From IMG/VR virus record IMGVR_UViG_3300035689_000004, positions 28,547 to 92,546 of that record: a DNA stretch of 64,000 nucleotides. One strand, 5' to 3'. Position numbers and translations under genes: made by a program. The stretch is from a virus. The notes below the pieces were generated by a model. It made no database searches. It was not told the DNA's origin and saw only the letters and a program-made list of their open reading frames with translations. Below, piece by piece: positions 6,373 through 41,698 of this stretch (position 1 is its first letter; the number at the start of each line of letters is the position of its first letter).

Positions 6373-6422
6373 GTGCCATGGTGAGAGCTGCTCAGAGTTC
6401 TAGCTATGGCACAACTAGCCTA
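6373..6422. repeat. Inverted repeat next to recombinase start
   Basis: GTGCCAT (6373-6379) and ATGGCAC (6416-6422) form a 7-bp dyad with a 36-bp spacer in the 148-bp gap between the recombinase and the divergent gene. Serine integrase attP sites commonly lie beside the integrase gene, so this is a candidate attP or operator; the sequence alone does not decide. Confidence 0.3.
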
Positions 6423-6471
6423 AATTAAAGTGTTATCGTAAGATATACACAAATCGAACCCAGGAGGCAGT

Positions 6472-25067: not shown

Positions 25068-25789
25068 TCTATTACCGTTTCTATGGATGCTTGTACGAGC
25101 ACCGGGGAGATCGCCTGTGCAAGGTAGCGGTCGGCACGATGCAGACCCGTAATGGCATCCAGTACCAGCTAAACCAAAACCATCGCTGGCAACGGGTCAA
25201 GGATTTTGCTGTCCATGAGGGCGATGAGGTAGGGCGTAACGTAGCGGCATGGAAGGCAGGCAAGGTGATTGGCGGAGCGGTCGCTAACCACGCGATCGCC
25301 ATGGGTGCTGACCCGATGGCGGCTCAGTTAATTTCAGAAACCGTGGTGCAGGCGGGTACGGCAACGGCACTATGGGCCGCCCAGCAAGCGCGTAAGGGCA
25401 CCCTTACCGCCGAAGGGTTAGCGGCTTACTTTATCCAACAATCAGCGGCGGCAGCCCTGGGCAAGATGGCCCACCACGAGGCAGAGCATTGGTTGCATAC
25501 CTACAACGCCCAGGCGATCGCCCAGCAGGTAGGGCCAATCTTGGCGGGCAAGGGGGCGGGGCTAGGAACAGTTGTGACGACCGCTAAGACTAAAGCCCAT
25601 ACCGCGTTGGTAGACTGGGTGGTTAGCCGCAGCAAGCATGATCTAGCGATGCTGGGCAAGGTGTTTGGCCATGACCTAGCCAAGGCGGCTGACCCGCAGG
25701 CGATCGCATTGTTGTGGCAATTGCACCAAGCAGGTATTGCCATGGCCGCTATGCAGTTGAGGTATGCCCATGATGAACATCAGCCCTGA
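25064..25789 (+). CDS. RW-tagged Ala-rich protein
   Basis: 241 aa from TTG 25064, which overlaps the previous stop; ATG 25139 is an alternative. The N-terminus repeats the cassette seen at 40628 and 51993: RFYGCLYEHRGDRLCKV, then RNGIQYQLNQNHRWQRV (about residues 28-45). The rest is a long Ala/His-rich helical domain (AAWKAGKVIGGAVANHAIAM, AAALGKMAHHEAEHWLHTYN). Function unknown; the tag suggests it belongs with the packaged-protein set. Confidence 0.55.
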   Translation: MIYYRFYGCLYEHRGDRLCKVAVGTMQTRNGIQYQLNQNHRWQRVKDFAVHEGDEVGRNVAAWKAGKVIGGAVANHAIAMGADPMAAQLISETVVQAGTATALWAAQQARKGTLTAEGLAAYFIQQSAAAALGKMAHHEAEHWLHTYNAQAIAQQVGPILAGKGAGLGTVVTTAKTKAHTALVDWVVSRSKHDLAMLGKVFGHDLAKAADPQAIALLWQLHQAGIAMAAMQLRYAHDEHQP

Positions 25790-25919
25790 ACGCGCCGAAC
25801 TATTGAAGCTAAAGGAAATGAGCGATGAGGAACGGCTTAGCTACCTGCTAGCCCGCCACGCGCTTATCCCCCTTGGCAGCCCACTGCCGCCTATCCATCA
25901 AGTGCTATGCGAACCCTAA
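25770..25919 (+). CDS. Small hypothetical protein (49 aa)
   Basis: MMNISPERAELLKLKEMSDE, then a helical end. It overlaps the previous gene by 20 bases and the next by 13, so it is an in-phase link in the operon. The Met-Ser-Asp-Glu stretch and overlap pattern favour a real gene; no function visible. Confidence 0.5.
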   Translation: MMNISPERAELLKLKEMSDEERLSYLLARHALIPLGSPLPPIHQVLCEP

Positions 25920-28900
25920 CGCCAAAGTCAAAGCCCACGCCATTGCGCCCCAAGGGTGTCTTTGAACTGGAAATCCAGCCCGGCGATCGCCTGTACTTTG
26001 TCGGCAATGACTGTGAATTGTACCGGGGCGAACAATGCCTAGGGCGCTACGGCTACCACTGGGAGGATGACCTAGCCAAAGCGGTACAACGCACCCAGCT
26101 AGCTCTGGTGGAGGGCGAAGAGAAGCCGGTTAAGGGTCCTAATGTCACCAGCATGAAGCCGGAGGCCAAGGCACCCAAGGCACCGAAGGCACCGCCTAAG
26201 CCCGAGGAACAACCGCAGACCGGCGAGCGGTGGATCACCCTCCACCCCAACAAGGAAAACCCGGACTCCTACGTCAGGGTGAAGATCCGGCAGCACCCGG
26301 ACGGCACCGCCAGTGTGATTGCAGGCGCTAAAGGCAAGCTGAACCAATTGCGCCTGACCAAGCTACGCAGCCCGGAAGAATGGAAGGAACGCGCCGCAGA
26401 ACGCAAACAGAAACGACAGGAGAAGGAAGCAAAACGTCGGGCGGAGTTAAGCGAAGGCGATCGCCAAGCGGAGGACGACGAAACCACCCAAGCCCGGGAG
26501 TACCACCGGGGCGAACGGCACCGTAACGCCAAGGCTACCCTAGACGCCTACCAAGAGGCAGGGCTAGACCACGGGCTAACGCCAGACCACCTAGCCGCCC
26601 TTGATACCCCCGCTGGTGCTGACACCGACCCGGAGGAAGCCAAGCAAGTCGAAGCCCTAGCCAGAGAAGCGGTGCAAAAGGCAGCCGCCATCCAAAAAGC
26701 TTATGAACAACGCCTTGTCCAGGACCATGACGCCCGGGCCGCCGCTAAGCTAGGTGATGAATCCCTAGAGGGGCTAGGCAACCCCCTGCAGCAGGATATT
26801 GACCACACCGCCTATGGCGCCGACGGTGACGCCATTTCTAACCTCATCCAACTGCCCAATGGGCAATGGCTGGTTACCGCTGACGATAAGGCAGATGCTA
26901 CCTTTGACACCTGGCAGGAGGCGGCTAAGTATCACCTGGGTAATGTCAACGAGTACGACGGCACCGCCGGCGATCGCAGCCAGCCCGACGACTTTTATAA
27001 CCCCAAGCTATGGGTGGCCAACCCAGATGGCGTTGATTTTTCTCCCCAACTAGCTGGGCAGATGGCAGCCCTGGCCCTGCAGCGCAAAGAGATTGATCGC
27101 TCTGATAAGGCAGCGGGTAAGGCTATCAAAAAGAAAATGCCATGGAAGCGAGAACAGGGGTTTGACATTGGCGGGGTTAGTGGCATTGACGACCAAGCCG
27201 CGATCGCGCAACTGGACCAGGATGCCAAAACCATCGAGGATGCCATCACCCACGGCAAGCTGCTGGATATGGCGGGGCTGTTGGACCCGCAAGCGATGGC
27301 CAAACACCTGCAGACCGGTGGCATCGCCCAGTTGGGGGAAATTGCCTCTGACGTGCTCAAAGTTGCCCAGGTTGATCCGGCAATCATCGCCCAGATGGGC
27401 CACGATGAAGCGGCCAAGCTGATTGCCTACCAGATCCGTCAGGCGGTGGGGGATAGGGAGTATCAGGCGATCGCGGCAGCCCAGGCGGCCCACCATGGCC
27501 AATGGTCCACCGAGTACGCTAACCAAGTGATTGCCGAAAACCAACCCCGCCTGGACGCCCTGCGCGACATCCACCGCCGTATGCAGGAGATCGAAGCGGC
27601 CAAGGATGGTGACTATACCGCCAACCAACTCATTGAACTAGATACCCTCTCCTACCAGTCGGAGACATTGCAAGCGTCATTGCAGCAGTCCATCGGCACC
27701 GCCCTGGGGCAATTGCAGGCTAGTGCGGCGATGACCCTAGCGTTAGAGTCCAAACCCCGTAGCCTACGCTTTGCCGTCAAGGGTAGCCATGGCGAGGTGG
27801 CCGACGTGCCCGGGCTATTGTCTACCGATGGCAGCCCATCAATCTGGAGCAGCTACGGACTAACCGCTGAAGACTTTAGCCTGGAGGATGGCCCGGATGG
27901 GCAGTTGGTATCTATCCAGCCCAGCGGCATGGAAAAGCTTGCCAGCGCCACCTATAACCCGGAGGACCGGGACGCCTACGAGGAGGCGATCGCCATCAAG
28001 CGCGGTGCCTACGATGAGGACGGGTTCACCCCCGCTGGATTTGCCTATCGGCCTGAGTCCACCTTTACCGATGTGCGGGCGGAAGCCCAGCAGTTTGATA
28101 CCACGTTTAACTACCAGCCGGAGATGGATGATGCTGAGGTGCTGCAGGCGGTTAAAGCTTATCTGGGCGCCCGGGTAGCCAATGGCGAAGATCCAGCAAG
28201 TGTCAGAAATGACCTGTTCTCCCATCAGCTCTATTTCAACCTAGGGTTGCTTGAACACGCAGACCGCATCAAGGGGCTTTTGCTTAAGTTTGAAAAAGAA
28301 AAGTATGGCGATAAGGTCTATCCAGGCGCCAAACAAATCCGCAACGACTACCAGGAAATTGCAAACGAAGAGGCCGCCCGACTTAGGGGCACCCAGGCGG
28401 TAGAGTCACCTGAAGTACTGCACAGCCAAAACCTGGACGCTGATAGCGCCAAGGAGGCCGCCCACCGCACCCTGGCCGCCATGCCCATGGCGAGGGCTGC
28501 CCTCAAGCCATTGGACCAGCTATCCTCCAAAGAACGTAAGTACCTGCGCGACTACGCGATCGCGGAGGTGATGAACGAAACCCTAGAAGCACCGGCGCGA
28601 TCGACACAGCCCGCCGCCCAGGAGGAAGCGCCTGAGATGGGGGCATTGTTCGACCTATCTGCCTTCGGTTCCCCTGAAGAAGAGTCCAACGACCCGGACG
28701 ATCGCCCCATCAGCCTATTTGAGGACGAGAACGACGATCGCCCATTTGAATCCCTTACCCAGTGGCAAAAGTTTTGCCGCATCGTTGGCGGTGAGCATAA
28801 AGCCTATGAAGCACTCCAGGACCGCATTAAGGGTAATTTCTACAGTCGTTTTGCTGGCGCCTATTCATCATTGCAGGGCAAGCCACTAAAGACTGGACTG

Positions 28901-30955
28901 CAAACGATGGTCCACGTGGATCGCCTAGCCGCCGCCAGCCTGCCGCCGGAAGAGCGGGAGGAATTTCTATCATTCCTTAGGGCTCAGGCGCAAAAGGATA
29001 TTGCCGCCGCGATGGAGCGCGACGAGCGAGGGCGGTTTGTAGACCAGACCGAGGGCTGGATAGACCGCTATGAAGAACTGAAAGGTCAGAAACGGCAAGC
29101 CGAACTACTGACCACCGAATCCACCTACCAAGGCAACGCCAGCCAATGGCAACGCACCACCCTAGGCACCCAGGCGGAGCAGGACTTAAATGATGCCCTC
29201 CAAAGCGTCCTACCGGGCTTCGAGCAGGTTAACTCAGCGGTGAATATCTACCCCGAGGTACGCTGGAATGGTGGCTTTGTCGCCCACCAGCGCGGGCTAA
29301 AGCTGCTAGAGAGCCAGAAGAAGATCGGCATGCACTATAGTGCCGGTTCTGGAAAGACATCAGGGATGCTCGGTGCTTTCACTCACCTGCACAGTCAGGG
29401 TAAAGTCACCCGTACCCTGGTAGCGGTGCCCTCCGGCATTCTGGGGCAGGCGGTGGGGGAATGTGCCACTTTCCTAGAGCCCGGGCAGTATAGCTACTCC
29501 GCCAACATTGGCTGGGACCGGGAGAAGCGCTTAGAGGCACTGCGTAACCCCGATATGCACCTCCACTTTACCACCCGGGAATCCCTCGCTAGCGACCTAT
29601 TGCACCTGGTGGAAAAACACACCGGCATCGGGGCGGAGGACTTTCAAAATACCGACGCCCGCAGTGAGGACGATCGCCGATCGCTTCTCCTAACCGCCCT
29701 GCAGCAGGAAGGCGTTGACCCTAGCAGCCTGCTATTCAGTGTGGACGAAGCCCACGACCTATCCCGCCGCCAAGGTGTATCACCGTCCCGCCGATCGCTG
29801 GTGCTTGATGCCCTAGCCCACCATAGCGCCTACCATATCAATGCCACCGGCACTCCCCTAAAGAATGATGCCTCCGAGATTGCCGACTTCCTGCAAAAGG
29901 TAGGGGCACCTGAGGTAAAGGATGTCAGCGCTTTTATGGCCCGCTATGGCAAAAATACCCAGGCTAGCCGCCGTAGCTTGCAACGATTGGTGGCTAAGTA
30001 CGCTTACGCGATCGCCGTCAAACCCACCACCAAGGATGGACAGGAATTATCCATGCGGATGGAGCAGCCCAAGGTAGCCCTATCTGACCACCAAAAAACC
30101 CAGCGGGCGGAACTACTGAAGCACTACGATACCCTGCAAGCCTGGCGGGAGCAGGAACTGCCCAAGGTAATGGCCGCTAAGCGGGAGCGGGGTGATAACT
30201 CGCCCCTCAATGCCAAAGACCTTGCCCATGCCTGGGAGGATGAGGGCGTCCGAAATGCGATCGCCGCCCTGTCGCCTGAGTCCTACGGCAAACTGGACGA
30301 GGCCACCAAGCAAGCCAAAGCAGGCGGGCAATTGCTAGGGGCATCCGCGCTTAAATATGCCGCCCTATCGCGGCTCTACCACCAGACTGACTATGCCAAC
30401 AACGGCAAGGCGCAGCACGTCGTTAAAATGGCCGCCCAAGCTAAGGCGGACGGTAAGCCCATGGTGATCTTTGCCGCCTCCGCCCAGGCCGCCCAGATGT
30501 TGCGGGACCAGCTTGCCAAGGAGGGGCACCGGGTTGGCTATATCGACGGCACCCTGGGGCCAGCGGAGAAAGACAAAGAACGCCTACGGTTCTCCCCCGT
30601 CGCCGGCGAGGACGCTGAAACCGACATTCTAGTGGCCACCGACGCCGCCCAGACTGGCCTTAACCTGCAACGGGGTAAGCTACTAGTCCACTACGATATT
30701 CCCCTCACCCAAAAGGCGTGGGACCAGCGCTCAGCCCGCATCTACCGCCGTGGCCAGACCGAAGATGTGGACGTTCACACCCTGGTCGCTGATGCCCCGG
30801 AGGATGCGATCGCCCTAGCTCGAATGCAACGCAAAGGTTCCGACAGCGAACTATTCCAGGGCGCTGATGCCACCCAGGGCCATGCTGAACTGTTGGACGA
30901 TACTGGACTAGCCGCCGCGATCGCGGAGTTTATGGCAGAGGATGACCCAGGCTAG
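25907..30955 (+). CDS. Giant superfamily 2 (SNF2-like) helicase, 1682 aa
   Basis: The N-terminus starts with LEIQPGDRLYFVGNDCELYR, then a GERWITLHPNKEN ... VRVKIRQHPDGTASVIAG module and a charged coiled coil (WKERAAERKQKRQEKEAKRR). About 1000 residues of unrecognised, mostly helical sequence follow. The C-terminal third is a helicase: Walker A SAGSGKT (about 1145), DEAH box SVDEAHD (about 1278), ATGTPLKN (about 1310), helicase C motifs ATDAAQTGLNLQRGKLLVHY and QRSARIYRRGQ (about 1607). No methylase or nuclease motif seen. It sits in the late cluster, so I infer a packaged antirestriction or DNA-processing protein, like internal head proteins of phage P1. Could instead act in replication. Confidence 0.7.
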   Translation: MRTLTPKSKPTPLRPKGVFELEIQPGDRLYFVGNDCELYRGEQCLGRYGYHWEDDLAKAVQRTQLALVEGEEKPVKGPNVTSMKPEAKAPKAPKAPPKPEEQPQTGERWITLHPNKENPDSYVRVKIRQHPDGTASVIAGAKGKLNQLRLTKLRSPEEWKERAAERKQKRQEKEAKRRAELSEGDRQAEDDETTQAREYHRGERHRNAKATLDAYQEAGLDHGLTPDHLAALDTPAGADTDPEEAKQVEALAREAVQKAAAIQKAYEQRLVQDHDARAAAKLGDESLEGLGNPLQQDIDHTAYGADGDAISNLIQLPNGQWLVTADDKADATFDTWQEAAKYHLGNVNEYDGTAGDRSQPDDFYNPKLWVANPDGVDFSPQLAGQMAALALQRKEIDRSDKAAGKAIKKKMPWKREQGFDIGGVSGIDDQAAIAQLDQDAKTIEDAITHGKLLDMAGLLDPQAMAKHLQTGGIAQLGEIASDVLKVAQVDPAIIAQMGHDEAAKLIAYQIRQAVGDREYQAIAAAQAAHHGQWSTEYANQVIAENQPRLDALRDIHRRMQEIEAAKDGDYTANQLIELDTLSYQSETLQASLQQSIGTALGQLQASAAMTLALESKPRSLRFAVKGSHGEVADVPGLLSTDGSPSIWSSYGLTAEDFSLEDGPDGQLVSIQPSGMEKLASATYNPEDRDAYEEAIAIKRGAYDEDGFTPAGFAYRPESTFTDVRAEAQQFDTTFNYQPEMDDAEVLQAVKAYLGARVANGEDPASVRNDLFSHQLYFNLGLLEHADRIKGLLLKFEKEKYGDKVYPGAKQIRNDYQEIANEEAARLRGTQAVESPEVLHSQNLDADSAKEAAHRTLAAMPMARAALKPLDQLSSKERKYLRDYAIAEVMNETLEAPARSTQPAAQEEAPEMGALFDLSAFGSPEEESNDPDDRPISLFEDENDDRPFESLTQWQKFCRIVGGEHKAYEALQDRIKGNFYSRFAGAYSSLQGKPLKTGLQTMVHVDRLAAASLPPEEREEFLSFLRAQAQKDIAAAMERDERGRFVDQTEGWIDRYEELKGQKRQAELLTTESTYQGNASQWQRTTLGTQAEQDLNDALQSVLPGFEQVNSAVNIYPEVRWNGGFVAHQRGLKLLESQKKIGMHYSAGSGKTSGMLGAFTHLHSQGKVTRTLVAVPSGILGQAVGECATFLEPGQYSYSANIGWDREKRLEALRNPDMHLHFTTRESLASDLLHLVEKHTGIGAEDFQNTDARSEDDRRSLLLTALQQEGVDPSSLLFSVDEAHDLSRRQGVSPSRRSLVLDALAHHSAYHINATGTPLKNDASEIADFLQKVGAPEVKDVSAFMARYGKNTQASRRSLQRLVAKYAYAIAVKPTTKDGQELSMRMEQPKVALSDHQKTQRAELLKHYDTLQAWREQELPKVMAAKRERGDNSPLNAKDLAHAWEDEGVRNAIAALSPESYGKLDEATKQAKAGGQLLGASALKYAALSRLYHQTDYANNGKAQHVVKMAAQAKADGKPMVIFAASAQAAQMLRDQLAKEGHRVGYIDGTLGPAEKDKERLRFSPVAGEDAETDILVATDAAQTGLNLQRGKLLVHYDIPLTQKAWDQRSARIYRRGQTEDVDVHTLVADAPEDAIALARMQRKGSDSELFQGADATQGHAELLDDTGLAAAIAEFMAEDDPG

Positions 30956-30996
30956 CAGAGCATATATACTAAAGGGGTCGTGTTAGGGATACCCCG

Positions 30997-31134
30997 ATGA
31001 GTGTTGAGCAAATCATTATCGAACTAGAAGATATTGCCGCTGTCCTGCGCAGCGATGCCGCTGTTGACCAGGAGGCGATCGTGGCCCGAGCGGAGCGGGT
31101 AAGAGATGAAATACTGGCGGCAAGCCAGGAGTAG
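30997..31134 (+). CDS. Small acidic protein (45 aa)
   Basis: ATG 30997 with GGGAT-type weak site. MSVEQIIIELEDIAAVLRSD and an Ala/Glu/Arg-rich helix. It is followed 22 bases later by a strong terminator. Acidic helical; function unknown. Confidence 0.5.
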   Translation: MSVEQIIIELEDIAAVLRSDAAVDQEAIVARAERVRDEILAASQE

Positions 31135-31156
31135 TTTAACGTTAGGTTTTGGCAGA

Positions 31157-31180
31157 CCCCCGACGATCGTCGGGGGTTTT
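31157..31180 (+). terminator. Intrinsic terminator after helicase unit
   Basis: A perfect 20-bp palindrome from CCCCCGACG (31157) to CGTCGGGGG (31176) followed by TTTT. It separates the helicase unit from the promoter of the 31280 gene. Confidence 0.85.
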
Positions 31181-31192
31181 GCTTTGGGTGGC

Positions 31193-31210
31193 TATTGCAA
31201 ATATGCAATA
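31193..31210. promoter_or_regulatory. TATTGCA-N4-TGCAATA dyad
   Basis: TATTGCAAATATGCAATA is a perfect 7-bp dyad with a 4-base centre. It is the best-formed copy of the TTGCATATTTGC site family and lies upstream of the 31280 gene and the sigma factor gene. Confidence 0.55.
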
Positions 31211-31279
31211 AAAACGCTATTATGCTTTGACATGGTGCAAAAGTACTAATGCCAGACTTTAAGTTTAGAGATAAAAGCG

Positions 31280-31522
31280 ATGCAAGCTTATTTAATTTAC
31301 GCTTTGATTAATCGACGCTTTCTGCTTCCTAAGCACGTCGCTGCTGTTGTGACAGCGACTACCACTAAAGAGGCGGCTGCCTTCTTCAAGGCAAAAGTGG
31401 CTGACGAACACAAAGTCAAAATTGAGTCTATTCGGATTCAGAAGATTTTGACCAAAGAGGGCATGACGCCCGAACAGTTAATCCAAGCTTGGGATGCCGC
31501 AGCTTATGAGGCTAGGCCTTAA
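31280..31522 (+). CDS. Small hypothetical protein before sigma factor
   Basis: 80 aa, ATG at 31280 (GAGATAAAAGCG upstream). MQAYLIYALINRRFLLPKHV is followed by a Lys/Thr-rich helix. It is regulated separately: a dyad and a terminator lie upstream. TAAAAACGCTAT occurs before it and again before the sigma factor gene. Function unknown. Confidence 0.55.
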   Translation: MQAYLIYALINRRFLLPKHVAAVVTATTTKEAAAFFKAKVADEHKVKIESIRIQKILTKEGMTPEQLIQAWDAAAYEARP

Positions 31523-31633
31523 CAATTCAACTTTAGGGGTTACTTATCCATAGGCACCTTTGGCATTTCTCCGTAGTAAAAACGCTATAGACGTGCTAAA
31601 AATACACTTGTGTTTTATTTTTGCTACACGCCC

Positions 31634-32746
31634 ATGCCTGGCATTCGCACCCTATACCCCCGTGGCAGTAAAGAAGACGGTTTAGGCGTATTCCTAGCCA
31701 AGATGGGCAGACACAAGCTTCTCACCCCTGCCCAAGAGATAGAGCTAGGGCGACAGGTGCAGGAGGGGCTATGGGCCGCGGCAACGGTCCTGGACGATCG
31801 CGATCGCCGTCAGCCACTACAGGAAGATTTCGAGCGCCAGCACCGTAGCGAGCACGGTGAATTACCAACTCAGGTGGAAATTGACGCTTACTTTGACGAG
31901 GCACGGCAGCGGTTGATTGATACCTACCGCCAGGGCCACCCGGAGGCGACAGAGGCGGAGATGCGCCGACACTTTGAACGGGTAGCCCGGCAGGGCAAGA
32001 AAGCTTGCGACCAGATGGTAATCCGCAACCTGCGCCTAGTAGTGAGTGTGGCCCACAAATATTCCAAGCACGGGCTAGAGCTAGGCGACTTGATCCAGGA
32101 GGGCGTTGTTGGCCTAGTGCGAGGGGTAGAAAAATTTGACCCGGCGAAGGGTTATAAATTTTCGACCTATGCCTACTGGTGGATTCGTCAGGCGATCACC
32201 CGGGCCATCAGCAACAAAGCCAAGTCGATCCGCCTACCGATCCATGTTGTGGACGTACTCAACAAGGTGCGCCGCTATGGCCATGTTTTTCGGGCTCAGC
32301 ACGGACGCTACCCAAGCGATCGCGAAGTGGCCGAGCATTTCTCCTCCCGCAATGGCGTTTCTGCCGATGAATGGCTACGACGCTTGCAACGGTTCAAGGC
32401 GATGAATATCGCGCCGACCAGCCTGGACCACGTGGTAGATAACGGCGATCGCGCTAAAAGCACAATCCACGACCTTGTAGGGGGTATTGATGATAGCTCT
32501 ATCAGTTTGTTTGGAGATCAGGTTATCGAGGAATTGGGCGCCGCTGTGGTGGGCTTGCCGACCAGGGAGCGGCAGGTGGTGGAACTAAAGTACGGGCTAC
32601 TCAGCGGTACGCCTAAATCCCTCAGCGAAGTGGCTAGGGAGATGGATGCACCCCTGGCGACGGTACGAACGATCCACGTCAGGGCATTACGGCGATTGTC
32701 TAGGGAGCGGCGGGGCTTGCGATCGCTGCTCGAAGGACTAGATTGA
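31634..32746 (+). CDS. Phage-encoded sigma-70 factor (RpoD-like)
   Basis: 370 aa from ATG 31634; an in-frame GTG at 31610 is less likely and neither has a strong ribosome-binding site. Region 1.2: [20 protein letters not shown]. Region 2 (about residues 128-195): [40 protein letters not shown] and [17 protein letters not shown], the -10-recognising part. Region 4 (about 325-355): [20 protein letters not shown]. All regions of a cyanobacterial group 1/2-type sigma are present, so it should direct host RNA polymerase to phage promoters. It lies between the two giant genes and overlaps the start region of the second. Confidence 0.9.
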
Positions 32747-32761
32747 ACCCCGATACAATAG

Positions 32762-32776
32762 GGGGTAAATTACCCC
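32762..32776. other. Stem-loop just before giant gene start
   Basis: GGGGTAA-A-TTACCCC stem-loop 11 bases upstream of ATG 32788. It may control access to the start, which lacks a normal ribosome-binding site. Confidence 0.35.
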
Positions 32777-32787
32777 TCTCTTACCCC

Positions 32788-35700
32788 ATGGCCATCAATA
32801 CCCTGCGCCCGCTGCGCCCCCGGCGGGCTATTTTATTGCGCAAAGACGCCCAGTTTGACTTGTTTGGCGGACAGGCAGAAGTAAAGCCGACAGCGGCGGC
32901 CAAGCGCCGGGAGCGAATTGCAGCAGGCTGGGGGGCTAAACCTAAAACCCAGCTAGGGCTATTTGGGCAGGATGACGATGTACCTGCCACCAAAGGCAAG
33001 GTAAAACCTAAGGCGCCTAAGGCACCCGTCGCGCCCAAGGTGCCAGAGGTAAAAGCGCCAGAGGTAAAAGCACCTGCTACACCTAAGGCGCCGTCTATGG
33101 CAGCAAAGGGACCCAAGGAGGGCGACACTCGCATTAACCGGGCAGGCAATCAGGAAGTATTGCGGGCAGGACGATGGCGGCTAGCCAGCAACCCTAAGGT
33201 AGTGGCTAAGGATAAGGGTAGTGCCGCGATCGTCCCGGTGGTTCAGGAGATTAAGGAGGAGAAGCCGGTAGAGAAACCAGCGGCAGCACCGGCGAAGGTA
33301 GAAGAGGTTAAGCCTGAACCCGTTGAGGTGCAGCAAGAGGTGAAGCCCGCCGAGCCAACTCCCGCGATCGCCGAGGAGAAACCTAGTCAGCAAGGATTGC
33401 CCCGGGCAACCATCCACCATGAGCGGCTTAATCGTTTCAAAAATCTTGCCAATAACGCTAGTGCGCTTCCCCCGGGTTCTAATAAAGAATCCATGAGAGC
33501 CGCTTTCCGGAAACTTTCTGGGGCGGTAAAAGATGAAGACAAAGTAGTACAAAGATGGCTGCGCGACTGGGAGAAGGAAGGGCTATCGCCTGATGAGGCG
33601 ATGCAAAGAGCTTATCGGTATGGTCAAGGGTTAGATCCCGTTCAGTCAGCGGAAGCACCAGCAACACCCACCACGCCGGAGCAACCTGCCGCTGAGCCAA
33701 CCCCGGCGATCGCGGTTGATGCTGACTTTGCTTCCACCAAGCAACAGAAGCAGCGCATCAAGATTAACCAGGATGTAGAGGCTCTGCTTAGCCAGAAGCC
33801 GGACGGACCTTATACCAAGGATGAATTAATCCTGCTTGCCAAGTATTCTGGCAAGGGCGGCATCACTGAAGATGACGGCAGCCTAAGCGAGTACTACACC
33901 CGTCCTGACGTTGCCAAGCACCTGACCGATATTCTCTACCAGCATGGATTTAAGGGCGGTGCCGTCCTAGAACCTAGCTGCGGTAATGGCGTATTTTTGC
34001 ATCAGTTCAAAGACGATCCCAACGTGTTGCCGGTAGGGGTGGAGCTAAGTGAAACCAGCGGCAAGGCGGCGGCAGCCCTGAACCCACACGCCGAAGTGAC
34101 AGCCGGGGCATCCTTTGAACGGTTCTGCCTAGACAATCCAGACTTTAGCCCTGATGCTGTAATCGGCAATGTTCCCTTTGGCACCCGCACCGTAGGCGGC
34201 GACCTAGAGGCATTTCGCAAGGTAGGGAAAGGATGGAAGGACAATGGCGACTTTTTCGTTCATGAAAGCCTATCCAGGCTGAAGCCAAGCGGCATCATGG
34301 CATTGATCGTGCCCCATGGCATCACCACCGGCAGCACCCATCAACGCCTGCGGGAGGAGTTGATGAAGCAAGGGCGGGTGATTGGCGTTCATCGTCTCCC
34401 TAATACCGCCTTTGCCCATACCAACACCAAGACTATTACCGATGTGCTGGTAATTCAAAAACATCCTGACGTCATCCTTAACGCGATCGCTGACGGGCAG
34501 AGTGATGTTATCGCCAAAACCCGAGACGATGCCTTTATCCATGGCAAATACTTTGAGGCTCACCCCGAACATGTCCTAGGCGAATACCAGGAGACCAGTA
34601 ACCAGTTTGGCGGTAAGTCATTTACCATCAACGGCAAGATCGAAGACGCGCTTGCCAGCGCCCAAGGGTTTACGCCAGACGTGAGCTATGACGGGCTACA
34701 AACAGATGGGGCGGAGGAGCGATCGCCGCAAAAGGGCGACACCCGTTATATCAATGGCAGACTGTACCGGCTAGAGGGTAACCCAGCCCGTTGGCACCTT
34801 GTCGAGCAATCTGAACCGGTTGCCGAGGAAGTGGACGCCTCCGGCTATGGTGCTGAGTCGATGGCAGATGCAGAGGCGCAGCTATTGGATGCGGGGCGAC
34901 GGGTCCTAATCCACCCAGATAACTTACAGGCATACCGAAACCTTGCCCACCAACACCTACCCAAGGCGGAGGCGATGGCGTTTGATGCCGCGATCGCGGC
35001 GAGTAATGCAGCAGGTTCTAGCATCGACAGGGAAAAGCTTGCCCACGCCATGCTGCTAGCAGACCACATTGAAAGGCTGCAGAAGGGCGATGCGGACCCG
35101 ATGCAGGTAGAGAAAGCGCTTAACATGCTGCAGGGCTACAGAGAGGCGCACGGCAACCCCTCGACCGACAAAACATTGATTGGGCTGTCTAGCCAATTCC
35201 CTGCGCTGTTGCGGCTACAGGGATGTTTTGACGAGAACGACAAGATCAGTGATTACTTCACCGACCATGACAAAGTTACCGCCCAGGTAAAGCGAACCCA
35301 TAGTGAAGCGGGCGCCGCTATGGCAGAAGCCTATCGCGCCGCCGGGGGCGAAGCGGTTGACCTGGACATGATCCGAGCTCAGTTAGATACAACGATGACT
35401 GATGCGGACCTAGAGGCAACCCTGGTTGCTGATCCAACGGTTGGCTATATCAATGGCGCCTACATGCCGATGGATCGGCTGCTGACCGGCAATGGCTTCA
35501 ACCTTGTTGATGCCATGCTGATGGAGGCAGAAGGGTTGCCAGAGGGTGCCGCCGCCCGGCGCAAACTTGAGGAGCAGATCGGCATCATTCGCTCCAGGCT
35601 AGAGCCAAGGCAGATGGAGGACATTACTACTCCATTCTGGGCCGTTGGCAGCTGGATACCTGTAGACGCGATTAATGCCTTTTTGACAGACCGCGACTAT

Positions 35701-38700
35701 GGTTCTTACTCCCAAGGGCAACGCGAACCTGTCAAAATCTACCGCGGGGCTGATGGTAAATGGCGGGTATCAGGCTATGCCTACGGCGTAGTAGAAGATG
35801 TCATCACCTCAATGAACCGGGGCAGGATTTCCCATGGCAAAAATACCCAAGAGGCAAAGGAAGCCGTCCAGGCGTTAGAGAAAGACTTTGCCCAGTGGAT
35901 TGCTGGCTCTGACTATCGCGTTCAGGTAGAGGAAGCCTATAACCTTGCCTTTAACTCTGACCTGCCCGAGCAGTTTAGTGGTGACCCGCTTGACATTAGC
36001 CTGTTTGAGCAATACGACGCAGACGAGGCGACCGGCAAGCGCAAAAAACGCCTGCACGACTACCAAACATCGACGATCCGGCAAATGGCCGCCCAGGGGA
36101 GAGGCATCATTGCCCTAGGGGTTGGACTTGGCAAGACAGCGACCAGTATCGGGCTAGCCTTGCACCTAAAAGAATCTGGCAGAGCCAAAAAGCCTACCTT
36201 TGTTGTACCCAAATCCGTCCTATCGAACTGGGTGAGGGAGGTAGGCTTCTGGGCACCTCAGGCGAATGTAATGATCCTGGGCCAGACCCAACGCTACTGG
36301 GCAGACGACACGCCCATGTGGGAGGTGCCAGGCTTTAAGATCGACGTTGCCAAGGGCGTACCAAAGCGCGATAAGGACGGCAACTATATTCTGTACCGTC
36401 AGATCGGGGAGCGTGACGTTACGACAAAAGGTAAAGACGGCAAAACCATAACCAAAAAGGAAAAGGTTTATGCCGATCAACCTATTTTGATGAGCGAAAA
36501 GGAATACCTCAAGGCAGGTAACCTTGTCTTTTCAGATGACGATGCCGCAACAAAACGGCTCAAACTACGCCAGTTGTCTCAAAACAACTATGACATGGTG
36601 CTGATGACGGAGCCTACCTTCCAGGCGCTTAGCTTGCACCCTGACAAAGAAACTGAGTACCTAGAGGACATCACCCAAGACGCGATCGGTCACCTGTCAG
36701 ACTCCAGCAAAGACACCCATAAGATGCTCGAAAAGATCGAGAAACGGCGGGTTAGCTTGGCCGCCAGGACTGATGACAATATCGAAGAGACGATCACCTT
36801 TGAGGAGCTAGGCATTGACGCGCTATTCCATGACGAGGCGCACCACCTTAAAAACCTGTACGGATCAAAGCGCAACCAAAGCTTAGCGTTTATGAGTCAG
36901 GCAGAGTCCAACCGATCGCTAGACTTTTACTACAAAGCCCGGTACATCCGGGAGAAAAACAACAACCAGAATGTTTACTTGCTTACCGCTACCCCTACCA
37001 CCAACAACCCGCTAGAGGCGTTTAACATGCTGCAACATGTTTGCCCGGAGGAGCTTGAAAAACGAGGCATCCAAAATATTGATGACTTCCTCGGCATGTT
37101 TGGCGATATGCAATCAGTTGAGGCGCCTGGCGTTGATGGCGAGATCAAGGAGAAATACGGGCTAGTTGGGTTCAAGAACCTTAAAGACCTGCGCCACCTG
37201 TTTAACAAGTATTGCCGGATGCAATCGGCTAAAGACGTTGGGCTTCCTATCCCTGAAGAAGCCACCCAGCATCACTATGTCAGTATGAGCCCGGCGCAAA
37301 AAGAACTTTACAACGATCTAAGGCGCCGCGCCCGTAATGCCGGTTCTGACAAAGGACCTCAGGACCACCTATTCTCAGTCATCAGCGACATGGATAAGGC
37401 GGTGATTGACCTTGCCTACTACAACGAAAGCGGTAGCGGCAAGTCTCCCCAGGTAGACATTCCAGAGGGTGAAAAGCCGCCTAAGGTTCAAGCTTGTATT
37501 GAGCAGGTGATGAGTAGCCGCAATGCCAACCAGGGCAAGCAGATCGTATTCTGTGACTCCGTGCAAATGCACCAACGCATCAAGCAACAGTTGGTCGAAG
37601 CTGGTTATCCCGAAGACCAGATCGCGATCGTCAATGCGGATGTTGCTAAAAATAGCCCAGACCGTCAGAAAATCAGCAATGCTTACAACGAAGGACGGAT
37701 TACCCTTGTCATTGGCAACACCGCCACCATGGGGGAAGGGATGAACTTTCAAATTGGCACCACTGACATTCACCACCTCACTACCCCATGGACCCCTGCT
37801 GCAATTGAACAGCGTAACGGACGGGGTGTTCGTCAAGGTAACGTACTAGACAATGTGGGCTGCCATTACTACCACGCCAAGGGCAGCTTTGACCAATATC
37901 GGCAACAAACCCTTGAGCGCAAGCGCGGTTGGATTGATGACCTATGGAAAGGGTCTGAGGATACCGCCTCCAACCAAGATACCGGGCTTCTCAATGCTGA
38001 CGAGATGGACATCATGCTGGCAGACGACCCAGAGGCGGCCCGGGCGGCGGCAGAGGCAAATCAAGAGCTTGCCCTTGACCGCCATCGCAAGAAGATGACC
38101 ACCGCCGCCCTGCGTGATTTTGCCCAGTTGCAGAACATGAGGCTGGTTGTCTCCAAGATGACCCCGGAGGCGCGCTCTAGGGAGCGTGGACGAGCGCTAG
38201 AGGCGCGACTAAGGCAGGTGACAGAAGCACTATCCAGGAATGAATACTTCCCCCACAAGCACCTGCTAGACGGCACTACGCCCGCTTATATCGGCTCTGA
38301 TGGCACCGTCTTGCAGGAGGGCGATCATGTTCGTCAGGATGATGGCAGCATTTATCAGATCACCAAGATAGACAATGCCAAGAGCAAATTTATCACCCAG
38401 ATGGTCAGCGGTCCTGACTACAGTCCATCCCGGCTATCGGAGAAGGGTGAAACCTTTGACTTTAAGCACGTCAATAGCACCAAGTCTCGCTCAGCGATCG
38501 CGCCAACGTCCTTTAACGAAAGGGTCCACGCGGACCGGGTGATTGATAGCCTATCTGCCTATGGTGCCTTTGAAACGATCGCTAGCCTATCGCCGGACGC
38601 GATCAACGAAAACCGGGGGCGAATCATGGACAAGCTTAAGAACGACTTGCCCTCCGCCTCCATGCCCTACCTGGACCCGGAGACCGATAAGCTCGTTCTA

Positions 38701-40224
38701 AATGCTTCAGTTAGCGAGATGCCAGCCAACGCCCAGGTGTTGTGGCCCCATGACGGTGAATCGATAGAAATCATCGTCAAGAAAATGGCAGAAGGTACTG
38801 GGGCAGGAACTTGGAAATTTGAAAGCCTCCTGCAACGAATGACCGGACGCAGTTGGAGCGCTGATGGATTAGGCGATGAAATCAAAGCCAGGGTGGAGGA
38901 GTACAAGCAACAAAATGCTGTCATAAAAGAGCAAGGACCTAAAGCCGGTGATACCCGTGTCAACGAGGCGGGGCACCAGGAAGTATTGCGCGATGGTCGT
39001 TGGCGTCGGGTTGACGAAGCTGACACGCCAACGCCTCAGCCTAATGCCGCCTATGCTGAAGGGTTGACGACTGAGCAACGCCTAGCCCTAGCTGAGGCGA
39101 TCAAAGAGAAAGCGCCAGCTAACTGGAGGGGCGACCAGCCACGGGAGCGCCAATTATCCAACGCGGTGTTCCAGGCGCTCGGCAATGACGTGGGGCTCAC
39201 TGTTGACGTGATGGAGCGAATTAAGCGATCGCCCTCTGACGAAGAGTTCATGGCAGCCCTGACGGCTGTTGCTGAGCCGGAGACGGCAACGGCTGAGCCG
39301 GATGCACCTGCCGTTGAAAGCGAGCCCAAGCAAACCAGATCGCCACGACTGCCAGAATCAGAGCATCCTCCCCACCCCGATCCTTTAGGTGCCATCCGTG
39401 ATGCACTAGAGCGCATCCAGGCAGATGATGACGTTGACGGCGGCGTTAAGCGCAATGGGATGGGCTGGAATTATTTCACCCGTAAGCTTGGCAGCAGCCT
39501 TGCCTATGAGGTGATGAGCGGCAACGAGCTAACACCTAGGCAGTATTACAAGGCATGGGAACTATTGACCAAACGTCATCGCCCCCAAGCAGGCGAACAA
39601 GCTACCGCCGATCAGCTTTCTAGTACGCTAAAGGAAATGTTTGGATGGGATGGCATCGAGTATGACAGCGATGGCGTAGAGGTGGGTGCCACCGGCAAAA
39701 TGCGCTTGGTTGGCGATGAAATCCATATCACCCGACCCTATAACAAAGCTGACCTTAACAAATTTAGGCGCATCCCTGGCCGCCGCTGGGACGGACAAGC
39801 TAAGGCGAACGTGATTCCTGTCCAGCGGTTCAGAGAAGCCCTAGAGCAATTCCCTGAAGAGGAGATGGACATCGATCCAGCCATCTTTGATCATCCTGGC
39901 ATCCAGGCTGACCCCGATGACATCCCAGCGGGGACCATCCAGGTTAAAGATGGAGAATTTCACATAACTTTCCCCTACGATCAAGAACTTGTCGCCCGGG
40001 TGAAAGGCATTAAGCAGCAGGGACGACAACTAGGAAAATGGGACGGCGCCAAGAAAGTATGGCGGTTCCCGGGCAGCAGAGAAGTTGAAGATTTGCTAAC
40101 CCGCGAGTTTCCAAATTTCCAATTAAAGAAAGCTGCTAAACGCTATTCCTTGGCAGGTGTTATCTACGAGCTTAGACGCACAGCCAGTAACGCCATTAGC
40201 TTAGTCCGAGTCCATCACGCTTAG
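32788..40224 (+). CDS. Giant adenine methylase-helicase (DarB-like), 2478 aa
   Basis: From ATG 32788 (a TTG 15 codons earlier is rejected). Order: QFDLFGG and QLGLFGQ (about residues 22-60); GDTRINRAGNQEVLRAGRWR and AIVPVV; methyltransferase motif I EPSCGNGVF (about 394) and motif IV NVPFG (about 460), as in N6-adenine N12-class methylases; helicase Walker A GVGLGKT (about 1110), DEAH box HDEAHHLKN (about 1347), TATPTTNNP, QRNGRGVRQGN (about 1676); a second RW module (GDTRVNEAGHQEVLRDGRWR); and two C-terminal HARP-like repeats (ITRPYNKADLNKFRRIPGRR, ITFPYDQELVARVKGI). Phage P1 DarB has the same methylase-plus-helicase architecture and is an injected antirestriction protein. This is the likely role here (inferred). 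Confidence 0.8.
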   Translation: MAINTLRPLRPRRAILLRKDAQFDLFGGQAEVKPTAAAKRRERIAAGWGAKPKTQLGLFGQDDDVPATKGKVKPKAPKAPVAPKVPEVKAPEVKAPATPKAPSMAAKGPKEGDTRINRAGNQEVLRAGRWRLASNPKVVAKDKGSAAIVPVVQEIKEEKPVEKPAAAPAKVEEVKPEPVEVQQEVKPAEPTPAIAEEKPSQQGLPRATIHHERLNRFKNLANNASALPPGSNKESMRAAFRKLSGAVKDEDKVVQRWLRDWEKEGLSPDEAMQRAYRYGQGLDPVQSAEAPATPTTPEQPAAEPTPAIAVDADFASTKQQKQRIKINQDVEALLSQKPDGPYTKDELILLAKYSGKGGITEDDGSLSEYYTRPDVAKHLTDILYQHGFKGGAVLEPSCGNGVFLHQFKDDPNVLPVGVELSETSGKAAAALNPHAEVTAGASFERFCLDNPDFSPDAVIGNVPFGTRTVGGDLEAFRKVGKGWKDNGDFFVHESLSRLKPSGIMALIVPHGITTGSTHQRLREELMKQGRVIGVHRLPNTAFAHTNTKTITDVLVIQKHPDVILNAIADGQSDVIAKTRDDAFIHGKYFEAHPEHVLGEYQETSNQFGGKSFTINGKIEDALASAQGFTPDVSYDGLQTDGAEERSPQKGDTRYINGRLYRLEGNPARWHLVEQSEPVAEEVDASGYGAESMADAEAQLLDAGRRVLIHPDNLQAYRNLAHQHLPKAEAMAFDAAIAASNAAGSSIDREKLAHAMLLADHIERLQKGDADPMQVEKALNMLQGYREAHGNPSTDKTLIGLSSQFPALLRLQGCFDENDKISDYFTDHDKVTAQVKRTHSEAGAAMAEAYRAAGGEAVDLDMIRAQLDTTMTDADLEATLVADPTVGYINGAYMPMDRLLTGNGFNLVDAMLMEAEGLPEGAAARRKLEEQIGIIRSRLEPRQMEDITTPFWAVGSWIPVDAINAFLTDRDYGSYSQGQREPVKIYRGADGKWRVSGYAYGVVEDVITSMNRGRISHGKNTQEAKEAVQALEKDFAQWIAGSDYRVQVEEAYNLAFNSDLPEQFSGDPLDISLFEQYDADEATGKRKKRLHDYQTSTIRQMAAQGRGIIALGVGLGKTATSIGLALHLKESGRAKKPTFVVPKSVLSNWVREVGFWAPQANVMILGQTQRYWADDTPMWEVPGFKIDVAKGVPKRDKDGNYILYRQIGERDVTTKGKDGKTITKKEKVYADQPILMSEKEYLKAGNLVFSDDDAATKRLKLRQLSQNNYDMVLMTEPTFQALSLHPDKETEYLEDITQDAIGHLSDSSKDTHKMLEKIEKRRVSLAARTDDNIEETITFEELGIDALFHDEAHHLKNLYGSKRNQSLAFMSQAESNRSLDFYYKARYIREKNNNQNVYLLTATPTTNNPLEAFNMLQHVCPEELEKRGIQNIDDFLGMFGDMQSVEAPGVDGEIKEKYGLVGFKNLKDLRHLFNKYCRMQSAKDVGLPIPEEATQHHYVSMSPAQKELYNDLRRRARNAGSDKGPQDHLFSVISDMDKAVIDLAYYNESGSGKSPQVDIPEGEKPPKVQACIEQVMSSRNANQGKQIVFCDSVQMHQRIKQQLVEAGYPEDQIAIVNADVAKNSPDRQKISNAYNEGRITLVIGNTATMGEGMNFQIGTTDIHHLTTPWTPAAIEQRNGRGVRQGNVLDNVGCHYYHAKGSFDQYRQQTLERKRGWIDDLWKGSEDTASNQDTGLLNADEMDIMLADDPEAARAAAEANQELALDRHRKKMTTAALRDFAQLQNMRLVVSKMTPEARSRERGRALEARLRQVTEALSRNEYFPHKHLLDGTTPAYIGSDGTVLQEGDHVRQDDGSIYQITKIDNAKSKFITQMVSGPDYSPSRLSEKGETFDFKHVNSTKSRSAIAPTSFNERVHADRVIDSLSAYGAFETIASLSPDAINENRGRIMDKLKNDLPSASMPYLDPETDKLVLNASVSEMPANAQVLWPHDGESIEIIVKKMAEGTGAGTWKFESLLQRMTGRSWSADGLGDEIKARVEEYKQQNAVIKEQGPKAGDTRVNEAGHQEVLRDGRWRRVDEADTPTPQPNAAYAEGLTTEQRLALAEAIKEKAPANWRGDQPRERQLSNAVFQALGNDVGLTVDVMERIKRSPSDEEFMAALTAVAEPETATAEPDAPAVESEPKQTRSPRLPESEHPPHPDPLGAIRDALERIQADDDVDGGVKRNGMGWNYFTRKLGSSLAYEVMSGNELTPRQYYKAWELLTKRHRPQAGEQATADQLSSTLKEMFGWDGIEYDSDGVEVGATGKMRLVGDEIHITRPYNKADLNKFRRIPGRRWDGQAKANVIPVQRFREALEQFPEEEMDIDPAIFDHPGIQADPDDIPAGTIQVKDGEFHITFPYDQELVARVKGIKQQGRQLGKWDGAKKVWRFPGSREVEDLLTREFPNFQLKKAAKRYSLAGVIYELRRTASNAISLVRVHHA

Positions 40225-40232
40225 GTAAATCC

Positions 40233-40631
40233 ATGCTTTACGACTCCCAAGACATTCAGGCGACCAAGGCGGAACTGCTTGCCAAATACCAGACAGATGA
40301 TCGCTATATCGCCAAAGTCCTACCAGCGATCGCGGCTATGGTTGAGCGCCCCTGGGCATGGACTCATTTCGGTCCTTACTGGCCAGTCGTTCAATCGCTA
40401 ATCGTCAAGTATTACCCGCAAATGGCAACCCAGGCTAAAGAGTGGGGCGATCCACCTGACTATTTAGCGCACTATTCCCAGGGCGATGATATGTCAGACT
40501 GCATTGCAGCATTGATGTACCTCGAAAAGGATGACGACTATCTAAGCCCTGTCAATCAACCCCATAGCATTGAACTGCAAGACGGCAGGCGGGTTCTGTA
40601 CTCACCTACATCAGGAATTATTGAGCCATGA
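40233..40631 (+). CDS. Hypothetical protein
   Basis: 132 aa, MLYDSQDIQATKAELLAKYQ. Trp/Tyr-rich (RPWAWTHFGPYWPVVQSLIV) and acidic. Starts 8 bases after the giant gene and overlaps the next start (ATGA). No recognised motif; the C-terminal LYSPTSGIIEP may be exposed. Confidence 0.5.
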   Translation: MLYDSQDIQATKAELLAKYQTDDRYIAKVLPAIAAMVERPWAWTHFGPYWPVVQSLIVKYYPQMATQAKEWGDPPDYLAHYSQGDDMSDCIAALMYLEKDDDYLSPVNQPHSIELQDGRRVLYSPTSGIIEP

Positions 40632-41698
40632 AATTATTCAAAAAGCGCAGACCCGCGATCGCTAAGTTTGACCCCTACCAAACAGCACTCCAACAATCCA
40701 TGGAAAGTGATCGCCAGGAGGTGCTGGAGAAAACAGCGACAGGACCCATCTTTACCCTCATGGGTGTCCCCTATATCTTTGACCCAGCCCAAGGGGTGCT
40801 GTGTAAGGCGGGGCGACGACGGGCACCCTCCCCGGGCCAGCTAGGTTTATTTGGCGGCCACAATGAGGGCGATACTAAGGTAGAGGATGGTGTCACTTAC
40901 CGGCTCAATGCCAATAGCCGATGGGAACGGATGGACAAACCCAAAGCCAGCGGCAAAAGGAAGCCAAAGCCCGCGATCGTCCCGGTGGTAGAGGCGGAGA
41001 AGCTTATGCCTGAGGTAGTTGACGATGCGCCCAAGCCTACTAGGCTAGGCGATCGCATCCGAGCGATCGCCAATGACCTGCGTGACGAAAATGATGAGCA
41101 GAAAAAGATCGCGGCTCGCATCTTAGGCGCAGCGGCCCAGATGGCGCAGAACTACGACAACTTGGTGGGTGAAGTTGTGGATATGGTGGGCGAGGACTTG
41201 GGTGAGGACATCAGAAGCCTTAACCCAGACGCCACCCAGGCGGACGTAGAGATGGCAGCCAGAGACGGCGGCAACGAGCCATCCCCCACCCGACTGGCTG
41301 ACAAAATGAAGGCGATCGCTAATGACCTGCGCAACGAAACCAACGAGCAGGTTAAGGCAACCGCCCGCATCCTTGACGCTGCCGCCCAAATCGCTCAAAA
41401 CTACGACAACCTAGTCGATGAAGTGGCGGAGATGGTGGGCGAAGACCTTCGCAAGCCATTAGATTCTACTCTCACCAAATCCTTGCCCCCTAGCCCCGTC
41501 TTTACCTTAATGGGTGTGCCCTACATCTTTGACCCCCACCGCGCCGTCCTGCGCAAGGCTGGCACCAGTTGGGAGCAGTTTGTAGCTGACCTCAGCAAGG
41601 AAGCTGATGACGATCCATGCTGGGAGGGCTACGAGGCTGTAGGCATGAAAAAGAAACGCGGCAAGATGGTTCCGAATTGTGTTCCTGTAAGCCGCTAA
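40628..41698 (+). CDS. Tagged protein with duplicated helical repeat
   Basis: 356 aa. Residues 41-115 carry the full cassette: FTLMGVPYIFDPAQGVLCKA, PSPGQLGLFGGHNEGDTKVE, YRLNANSRWERM and AIVPVVEAEK. Then come two copies of a helical repeat (IRAIANDLRDENDEQKKIAA and MKAIANDLRNETNEQVKATA, each with AQNYDNLV). A second FTLMGVPYIFDP copy and a C-terminal VGMKKKRGKMVPNCVPV tail follow. The tail matches a C-terminal peptide that I recall as recurrent in cyanophage proteins. Position between the methylase-helicase and virion genes suggests a packaged or assembly protein; no enzymatic motif. Confidence 0.6.
   Translation: MKLFKKRRPAIAKFDPYQTALQQSMESDRQEVLEKTATGPIFTLMGVPYIFDPAQGVLCKAGRRRAPSPGQLGLFGGHNEGDTKVEDGVTYRLNANSRWERMDKPKASGKRKPKPAIVPVVEAEKLMPEVVDDAPKPTRLGDRIRAIANDLRDENDEQKKIAARILGAAAQMAQNYDNLVGEVVDMVGEDLGEDIRSLNPDATQADVEMAARDGGNEPSPTRLADKMKAIANDLRNETNEQVKATARILDAAAQIAQNYDNLVDEVAEMVGEDLRKPLDSTLTKSLPPSPVFTLMGVPYIFDPHRAVLRKAGTSWEQFVADLSKEADDDPCWEGYEAVGMKKKRGKMVPNCVPVSR

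What the first reader, a model, noticed from the sequence alone, without database searches (positions are those of the whole stretch)
25907..40224. Two giant helicase proteins in the late cluster, one DarB-like
Genes for a 1682-aa helicase and a 2478-aa methylase-helicase lie between fibre genes and head genes. P1 DarB, an injected antirestriction protein, has methylase and helicase domains in one chain (established). The shared RW modules and placement suggest both are packaged and act on entering DNA.
Basis: partly seen in the sequence, partly recalled or inferred. Interest (0 to 1): 0.72.

Follow-up and report, generated by a model that had tools for sequence, protein, structure and literature searches.

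The report
Giant helicases with shared capsid-entry tags
Two giant DNA-motor proteins of an uncharacterised tailed phage sit among its capsid genes and, like most of their relatives, begin with a short lysine-centred tag that also marks the proteins processed inside the immature capsid, so they are probably packed into the virus head and injected with its DNA.

Summary
The two genes are real: 25907-30955 (1682 aa, SNF2-like motor) and 32743-40224 (2493 aa from TTG, 2478 from the next ATG; N6-adenine methylase plus SNF2 motor, DarB-like). Both families sit in late head clusters: 31 of 34 helicase loci and 29 of 34 DarB loci lie within about 10 kb of portal, minor head, protease, MCP or sheath genes.

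Packaging gains new support. A motif, [LIVMF]xK[AS], is strongly enriched in head protease, scaffold, portal and the capsid protein's N-terminus, but not in sheath or terminase. It also opens 29/34 helicases (3.7 expected) and 20/29 DarB-like proteins with an N-extension (5.0 expected). I read it as a shared capsid-targeting or head-protease site. The window's DarB copy is a variant (LLRKD). P1 DarB is targeted by its first 30 residues, but its authors found no shared signal.

Near relatives keep this leader but swap the cargo. Many leaders carry a beta-clamp-type peptide (QLGLF/QFDLF; 18/29 versus 0.3 expected), suggesting docking on the sliding clamp (untested).

The RW module is not the packaging signal: the 1682-aa protein has none, and in DarB proteins it follows the methylase, P1 included.

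The parts
25907..30955 (+). 1682-aa SNF2-like motor protein (helicase)
   Evidence: family alignment
26072..26092 (+). candidate tag DLAKAVQ (residues 56-62) of the helicase
   Evidence: relative L003 has LTKAVQ at the same place
26222..26356 (+). GERWITLHP module (residues 106-150), the best conserved N-terminal stretch of the helicase family
29096..29110 (+). QAELL, degenerate copy of the clamp-type pentapeptide that precedes Walker A in the helicase family
29309..30754 (+). SNF2-like motor domains (residues 1135-1616)
31610..32746 (+). sigma-70 factor gene between the two giants, at the same place in both near relatives
32743..40224 (+). 2493-aa (2478 from ATG at 32788) DarB-like methylase-SNF2 protein
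32833..32865 (+). leader core LLRKDAQFDLF (residues 31-41): variant tag plus clamp-type peptide
32950..32964 (+). second clamp-type peptide QLGLF (residues 70-74)
33115..33189 (+). RW module 1 (residues 125-149), part of the leader kept in relatives with other cargo
33715..34854 (+). LPD36-like GKGG motif plus N6-adenine methylase core (LEPSCGNG, NVPF)
34729..34806 (+). RW module 2 directly after the methylase; recognisable in P1 DarB; three-stranded beta-meander in the model
36097..37839 (+). SNF2 motor domains (residues 1119-1699)
38941..39015 (+). RW module 3 (residues 2067-2091)
40628..41698 (+). gene with the leader (VLCKAG...QLGLFGG...RW) and the C-terminal tag (VLRKAG...CWEGYEAVGMKKKRGKMVPNC) that ends the swapped cargo gene in both relatives
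25064..25789 (+). gene with an N-terminal RW module just upstream of the helicase
49870..50994 (+). phage-encoded sliding clamp (DnaN-like), candidate partner of the QLxLF peptides
51993..54722 (+). head maturation protease domain with an inserted leader cassette (VLRKAG...QLGLFGG...RW) and variable cargo; 7 tag motifs versus 2.2 expected
54738..55544 (+). probable scaffold; 5 tag motifs versus 0.33 expected
55573..56562 (+). major capsid protein, one N-terminal tag motif (ALLKS at residue 11)
16852..18390 (+). portal protein, one tag motif near the C-terminus (ELEKS)

Best explanation
Both giants are late, head-packaged 'polyvalent' cargo proteins. Each enters the prohead through an N-terminal tag built around a hydrophobic-x-Lys-Ala/Ser site that also occurs in scaffold, capsid, portal and protease, and that the head protease probably recognises (inferred from statistics). 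They are ejected with the DNA. The DarB-like protein then loads on the entering DNA, moves along it with its SNF2 motor and methylates or occupies it, which shields it from type I restriction as P1 DarB does (inferred by homology). The 1682-aa motor is a second co-packaged DNA translocase that often, but not always, accompanies DarB. Clamp-type peptides in both families may attach the cargo to a sliding clamp (hypothesis). The leader is a cassette: at the same locus relatives carry the same leader on other cargo.
For: Head-cluster position: 31/34 helicase loci and 29/34 DarB loci; similar order in PHB04 and Mecenats66. Tag motif [LIVMF]xK[AS] in helicase loci: protease 152 versus 25.1 expected (p=6e-66), MCP first 60 aa 25/25 (2.8 shuffled), minor head 17/18 (1.6), portal 8/9 (0.8), helicase 29/34 (3.7), DarB 10/14 (2.6); sheath 1/11 (0.7) and TerL 0/4 (0.7) negative. 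DarB with N-extension 20/29 versus 5.0; P1-type 2/12 versus 3.0. Helicase tag before the WIT module 24/27 versus 3.5. Protease: best PDB fold match T4 gp21 capsid protease, probability 0.97 but E 0.03 and TM about 0.4-0.5, conserved His/Ser. Cargo swap at the DarB locus. P1 DarB is in the virion and its N-terminal 30 aa suffice for capsid targeting (PMC9024508); the JC1 DarB-like protein was detected in virions by MS (PMC9144972).
Against: No proteomics or cleavage data for this phage or for any phage with this tag. The window DarB-like protein has LLRKD, not LxK[AS], and the helicase motif is at residue 56, not at the extreme N-terminus. A DNA-replication role late in infection would also fit motors with clamp peptides. 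In Lalka27a the helicase sits in the tail/baseplate module, not next to the capsid genes. Counts over the whole length of the two giants are near chance; only the N-terminal position is enriched. The motif was noticed in these sequences first and then tested, partly on the same set.
Confidence: 0.72

Rival explanations
1. The two motors are intracellular late replication or modification factors, tethered through QLxLF-type peptides to the phage or host sliding clamp; they modify or remodel newly replicated DNA and are not virion components.
For: QLGLF/QFDLF fit the beta-clamp consensus; QLGLF is exactly the E. coli Pol II clamp peptide. 18/29 DarB N-extensions carry such a peptide versus 0.3 expected; the phage encodes a clamp; its own small DNA methylase starts MHQLALF.
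Against: Genes lie with head genes. The N-terminal motif is shared with scaffold, MCP and protease. Some cargo with the same leader (a Dps-like domain, a protease fusion) is not an obvious replication factor. DarB homologues are virion proteins in P1 and JC1.
Confidence: 0.15
2. Only the DarB-like protein is packaged; the 1682-aa helicase is a head-assembly or DNA-packaging helper whose gene merely lies in the head cluster.
For: No helicase of this family has been reported in a virion in the papers read here; it occurs without DarB in Mecenats66 and in both near relatives. Head-cluster position also fits an assembly helper.
Against: The helicase family has the strongest N-terminal tag signal of the two (29/34 and 24/27), like proteins that pass through the prohead, and a clamp-type peptide like DarB leaders.
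Confidence: 0.12
3. The Lys-Ala/Ser motif is not a head-protease or targeting site but a compositional habit of coiled-coil and linker segments in late proteins.
For: No cleavage data exist; many unsorted 'other' genes in the clusters are also enriched.
Against: Expectations were computed from each protein's own composition; the motif is placed at fixed ends (MCP N-terminus 25/25, portal C-terminus in four phages, helicase just before the WIT module), and sheath and terminase are negative.
Confidence: 0.12

Closest known systems
P1 DarB (and D6, P7, RCS47 DarB)
   Same: LPD36-like GxGG motif, EcoKI/TaqI-type methylase with NVPF, RW-like module after the methylase, SNF2 motor; gene next to portal/head genes
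   Different: about 28-36% identity in the matched blocks; P1 and D6 lack the N-terminal extension, the clamp-type peptide and the extra RW modules
DarB-like protein and helicase of Bordetella phage PHB04
   Same: both giants present, in the same late head cluster, both with an N-terminal hydrophobic-x-Lys-Ala tag; DarB-like one with QLALF at residue 9 and an RW module after the methylase
   Different: 30-32% and 28% identity; DarB precedes the helicase; no shared leader cassette in other genes was found
Polyvalent proteins of Iyer et al. 2017 (PMC5512222)
   Same: methylase-SWI2/SNF2 dyad with LPD36, phage late-gene context, predicted packaging and injection
   Different: that survey, as far as its text was searched here, mentions no sliding clamp and describes no head-protease-type tag or swappable leader
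Capsid-targeting sequences and head proteases of T4 and SPN3US
   Same: N-terminal signals on internal proteins; the same protease cleaves scaffold, capsid protein and ejected proteins
   Different: SPN3US cuts after AxE; the motif here is centred on Lys-Ala/Ser and its cleavage is unproven
Beta-clamp-binding peptides (QL[SD]LF; Pol II QLGLF)
   Same: identical pentapeptide QLGLF; substitutions follow the consensus
   Different: binding untested; here in leaders of probable virion cargo

Membership tests
DarB-like methylase-SNF2 polyvalent proteins | N-terminal LPD36 with GxG[GAS] | tested here: met
   YSGKGG at residues 368-373, aligned with relatives
DarB-like methylase-SNF2 polyvalent proteins | EcoKI/TaqI-like gamma-class adenine methylase with TP and NPP(Y/F) motifs | tested here: inconclusive
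   fold and motif I met; motif IV is NVPF as in P1 DarB, not NPPF; TP is TRP
DarB-like methylase-SNF2 polyvalent proteins | SWI2/SNF2 motor C-terminal to the methylase | tested here: met
   SNF2-rel_dom 9e-18, Helicase_C 2e-9
DarB-like methylase-SNF2 polyvalent proteins | late-gene / head-gene context | tested here: met
   window annotation; 29/34 related loci
DarB-like methylase-SNF2 polyvalent proteins | presence in the virion and protection from type I restriction | not testable with these tools
   shown for P1 only by others
DarB proper (P1 Dar system) | companion Ulx, DdrB, DarA, Hdf genes | not tested
   no such match was seen in the PHROG scans of the larger window genes, but not every gene was scanned
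Packaged cargo with N-terminal capsid-targeting / head-protease site | N-terminal motif shared with head-protease substrates | tested here: inconclusive
   families: clearly enriched; window copies: helicase DLAKA at 56, DarB-like variant LLRKD
Packaged cargo with N-terminal capsid-targeting / head-protease site | leader sufficient for packaging; cleavage during maturation | not testable with these tools
   needs fusions and N-terminomics
Beta-clamp-binding proteins | QL[SD]LF-type pentapeptide | tested here: met
   QFDLF and QLGLF in the DarB leader; third position G/D/S in 17 of 21 DarB leader peptides. The window helicase has only a degenerate QAELL
Beta-clamp-binding proteins | measured binding to a sliding clamp | not testable with these tools
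   needs a binding assay

The most novel reading that the evidence does not exclude
A general cargo code exists in this large group of phages: an N-terminal lysine-centred head-protease/targeting tag admits proteins to the prohead, and cutting there leaves a mature N-terminus close to a beta-clamp-docking peptide, so that injected giants dock on the host or phage sliding clamp as infection starts. The leader cassette moves between cargo genes.
Probability: 0.3. Interest if true: 0.83.

Novelty: new variant of a known kind. Interest (0 to 1): 0.67.

Why it matters
P1's authors suspected a common capsid signal among Dar proteins but found no consensus. The motif here is statistically clear across dozens of phages and links two giant protein families to scaffold, capsid and protease, so capsid cargo could be predicted from sequence and the signal tested with simple fusions. 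The clamp-type peptides, if functional, would suggest how such injected proteins find their place on phage DNA in the cell.

Tried and rejected
RW module as packaging tag: rejected, because it is absent from the helicase and lies after the methylase in DarB proteins. An alignment of seven leaders was too divergent as a search query; narrower alignments worked. A single-protein search for the DarB-like protein in viral contigs found nothing; the two nearest relatives carry other cargo at the locus. A 25-aa RW query found nothing in plasmids and only PHB04 among annotated phages. Promoter and terminator scans were at chance level and were not used. Pfam and NCBIfam do not recognise the window protease; the protease call rests on a weak PHROG match, conserved His/Ser, position and fold. 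Paper searches for this cleavage motif or for clamp peptides in DarB proteins returned nothing relevant; absence from an open-access library does not prove novelty. The paper describing the P1 Dar system in full (PMC6011833) was not held.

Full report
What is there. The window is bases 28547-92546 of a 92,546-base virus record. Two very long intact ORFs lie on the + strand: 25907-30955 (1682 aa) and 32743-40224 (2493 aa from TTG, 2478 aa from ATG at 32788). The first is an SNF2-like motor (Helicase_C 1e-13, ResIII 9e-7, PHROG 62 2e-51). The second has an N6 methylase (residues 380-575) and an SNF2 motor (1119-1699) and matches the PHROG of DarB-like antirestriction proteins at 2e-111. Between them lies a sigma-70 gene whose end overlaps the DarB-like ORF by four bases. 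Around them are portal (16852), fibre-like genes, minor head gene (46206), sliding clamp (49870), head protease (51993), probable scaffold (54738), capsid protein (55573) and tail sheath (61482). The sheath gene marks it as a contractile-tailed phage.

DarB kinship. The large protein matches P1 DarB and about 120 other phage records at roughly 25-32% identity over the methylase and motor. It has the GKGG motif of LPD36, motif I LEPSCGNG and motif IV NVPF, the last the same as in P1 DarB. A model of the methylase region (pLDDT 85) matches M.TaqI, M.BseCI and type I M subunits. The small RW module follows the methylase in most DarB-like proteins with an N-extension and is recognisable in P1 (GEMRLINGVWQKYAGGRW). 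In the model it is a three-stranded meander. It is therefore not evidence of packaging, and the 1682-aa protein does not have it. RW modules were found in about 30 viral contigs but in only one bacterial-genome contig (the two searches used somewhat different patterns), and they lie between effector domains in giant polyvalent proteins with ADP-ribosyltransferase and sigma domains.

Neighbourhood across phages. Of 34 non-redundant loci of the helicase family, 31 have portal, minor head, protease, MCP or sheath genes within about 10 kb, often with the protease 3 kb and the MCP 5 kb after the helicase. Of 34 DarB loci, 29 do (the seeds were a handful of genes from this window, PHB04, Mecenats66, Lalka27a and P1, so the counts are lower limits). 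PHB04 has portal, DarB-like, helicase, protease, scaffold and MCP in one run; Mecenats66 has terminase, portal, minor head, helicase, protease and MCP.

A shared tag. The motif [LIVMF]xK[AS] is strongly enriched in scaffolds and head proteases (window scaffold 5 versus 0.33 expected; PHB04 scaffold 7 versus 0.7; protease-scaffold fusions 12-15 versus about 2). In the helicase loci taken together, proteases have 152 motifs against 25.1 expected, all 25 MCPs have one in the first 60 residues (2.8 expected), minor head proteins 17/18 and portals 8/9, whereas sheath and terminase show nothing. In four phages the portal also has one near its C-terminus (in Lalka27a the residue order is slightly different). 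The same motif opens the two giant families: 29/34 helicases (3.7 expected), in 24/27 ahead of the WITVHP module, and 20/29 DarB-like proteins with an N-extension (5.0 expected), but not P1-type DarB without extension. In PHB04 the DarB-like protein, the helicase and a (p)ppGpp-synthetase gene all have it at residues 4-6. The simplest reading is a head-protease site doubling as a capsid-targeting signal, as is known in principle for T4 and SPN3US (SPN3US cuts after AxE; PMC10052503). P1 DarB is targeted by its first 30 residues, and its authors found no consensus among Dar N-termini (PMC9024508). In this window the DarB-like leader is a variant, LLRKD, and the helicase motif is at residue 56. 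'Other' genes in those clusters are also enriched (72 versus 27.9 of 307 in the first 60 residues), as expected if further scaffold and cargo genes are among them, but they were not sorted.

The leader as a cassette. Two relatives about 90% identical in DNA keep the first ~117 residues of the DarB-like gene, and both end it with the C-terminal tag found here in gene 40628, but carry different cargo in between: a Strawberry-notch-type SNF2 motor (L003) or a protein of unknown function (L002). Both have a Dps/ferritin-like gene with a similar leader and an RW module next to it. The leader, with RW module and QLGLF, is also inserted in the head protease gene and heads two genes in the tail/baseplate module. 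A more distant relative (L114) has the protease without the insertion.

Clamp-type peptides. QLGLF is the clamp-binding peptide of E. coli Pol II (PMC3716654). In the first three genomes every match to Q-hydrophobic-[GSDN]-[LM]-F in ORFs of 90 aa or more lies in a leader protein (matches ending in L occur elsewhere). With a free third position over more contigs other matches appear, including the phage's own small DNA methylase (MHQLALF) and a few unrelated ORFs. Among non-redundant DarB-like proteins with an N-extension, 18/29 have the peptide there (shuffled mean 0.29, maximum 3 in 1000), 39 times denser than in the rest of the chain, and the unconstrained third residue is G, D or S in 17 of 21. 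The helicase family has a similar pentapeptide roughly 75-98 residues ahead of Walker A (QMGFF, QMGLF, QMSLF, QFSLF, QLALF, QISLL), degenerate (QAELL) in this window. In other tagged genes the enrichment is weak (7/234 versus 1.8 expected), so the peptide belongs mainly to the DNA-acting cargo. Clamp binding is a hypothesis.

Mechanism, step by step. Shown by sequence: domains, gene position, tag and peptide statistics, cargo swap. Inferred: the tag brings both proteins into the prohead and may be cleaved there; they are ejected with the DNA; the DarB-like protein protects entering DNA from restriction as P1 DarB does; the helicase is a second translocase; clamp docking places them on DNA. Not tested: any binding, cleavage, packaging or protection.

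Verdict. The protein type is known; the shared tag, the clamp-type peptides and the cargo-swapping leader look new in the literature that could be searched here.

Noticed in passing
window 51176-51916: Queuine tRNA-ribosyltransferase-like gene (PHROG 1279, 6e-58), possibly a DpdA-type enzyme for 7-deazaguanine in DNA, another antirestriction route.
   Followed up: no
window 31610-32746: A phage sigma-70 factor gene is fixed between the two giant genes here and in both near relatives.
   Followed up: no
L068:9941-19495 (contig 3300031801_000004): Giant polyvalent ORF (3185 aa, cut by the contig end) with ART-PolyVal stretches, sigma-70 and methyltransferase domains, four RW modules and QMDLF/QLSLF/QLGLF peptides; L074/L075 carry related 3655-4187-aa ORFs.
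   Followed up: partly
L002:12889-14541 and L003:14333-16342: Dps/ferritin-like domain with leader and RW module in a late phage gene, not seen in the window; a DNA-binding ferritin would be unusual head cargo.
   Followed up: partly
window 40628-41698, C-terminus: Motif CWEGYEAVGMKKKRGKMVPNC is present in 366 phage records, mostly T4-like cyanophages, nearly all in genes of unknown function, a few annotated as structural or virion protein.
   Followed up: partly
L268:756-3716 and L268:3994-9954: Two further giant genes (986 and 1986 aa) with the tag followed by QLTLF/QLPLF, upstream of a helicase of this family; probably more cargo.
   Followed up: no
PHB04 (L071) 35166-35744: (p)ppGpp synthetase-like gene with the N-terminal tag VFLKAQ near the DarB-like gene; candidate injected host-modifying enzyme.
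   Followed up: partly
window 13578-15767 (- strand): 729-aa protein without PHROG match, with internal repeats and an HNH-like C-terminus (FDHIRSRSVRSAENCMPL).
   Followed up: no
record G000 (outside the window) 5729-6520: The phage's own small DNA methylase begins MHQLALF, a clamp-type peptide at the very N-terminus, conserved in relatives.
   Followed up: no
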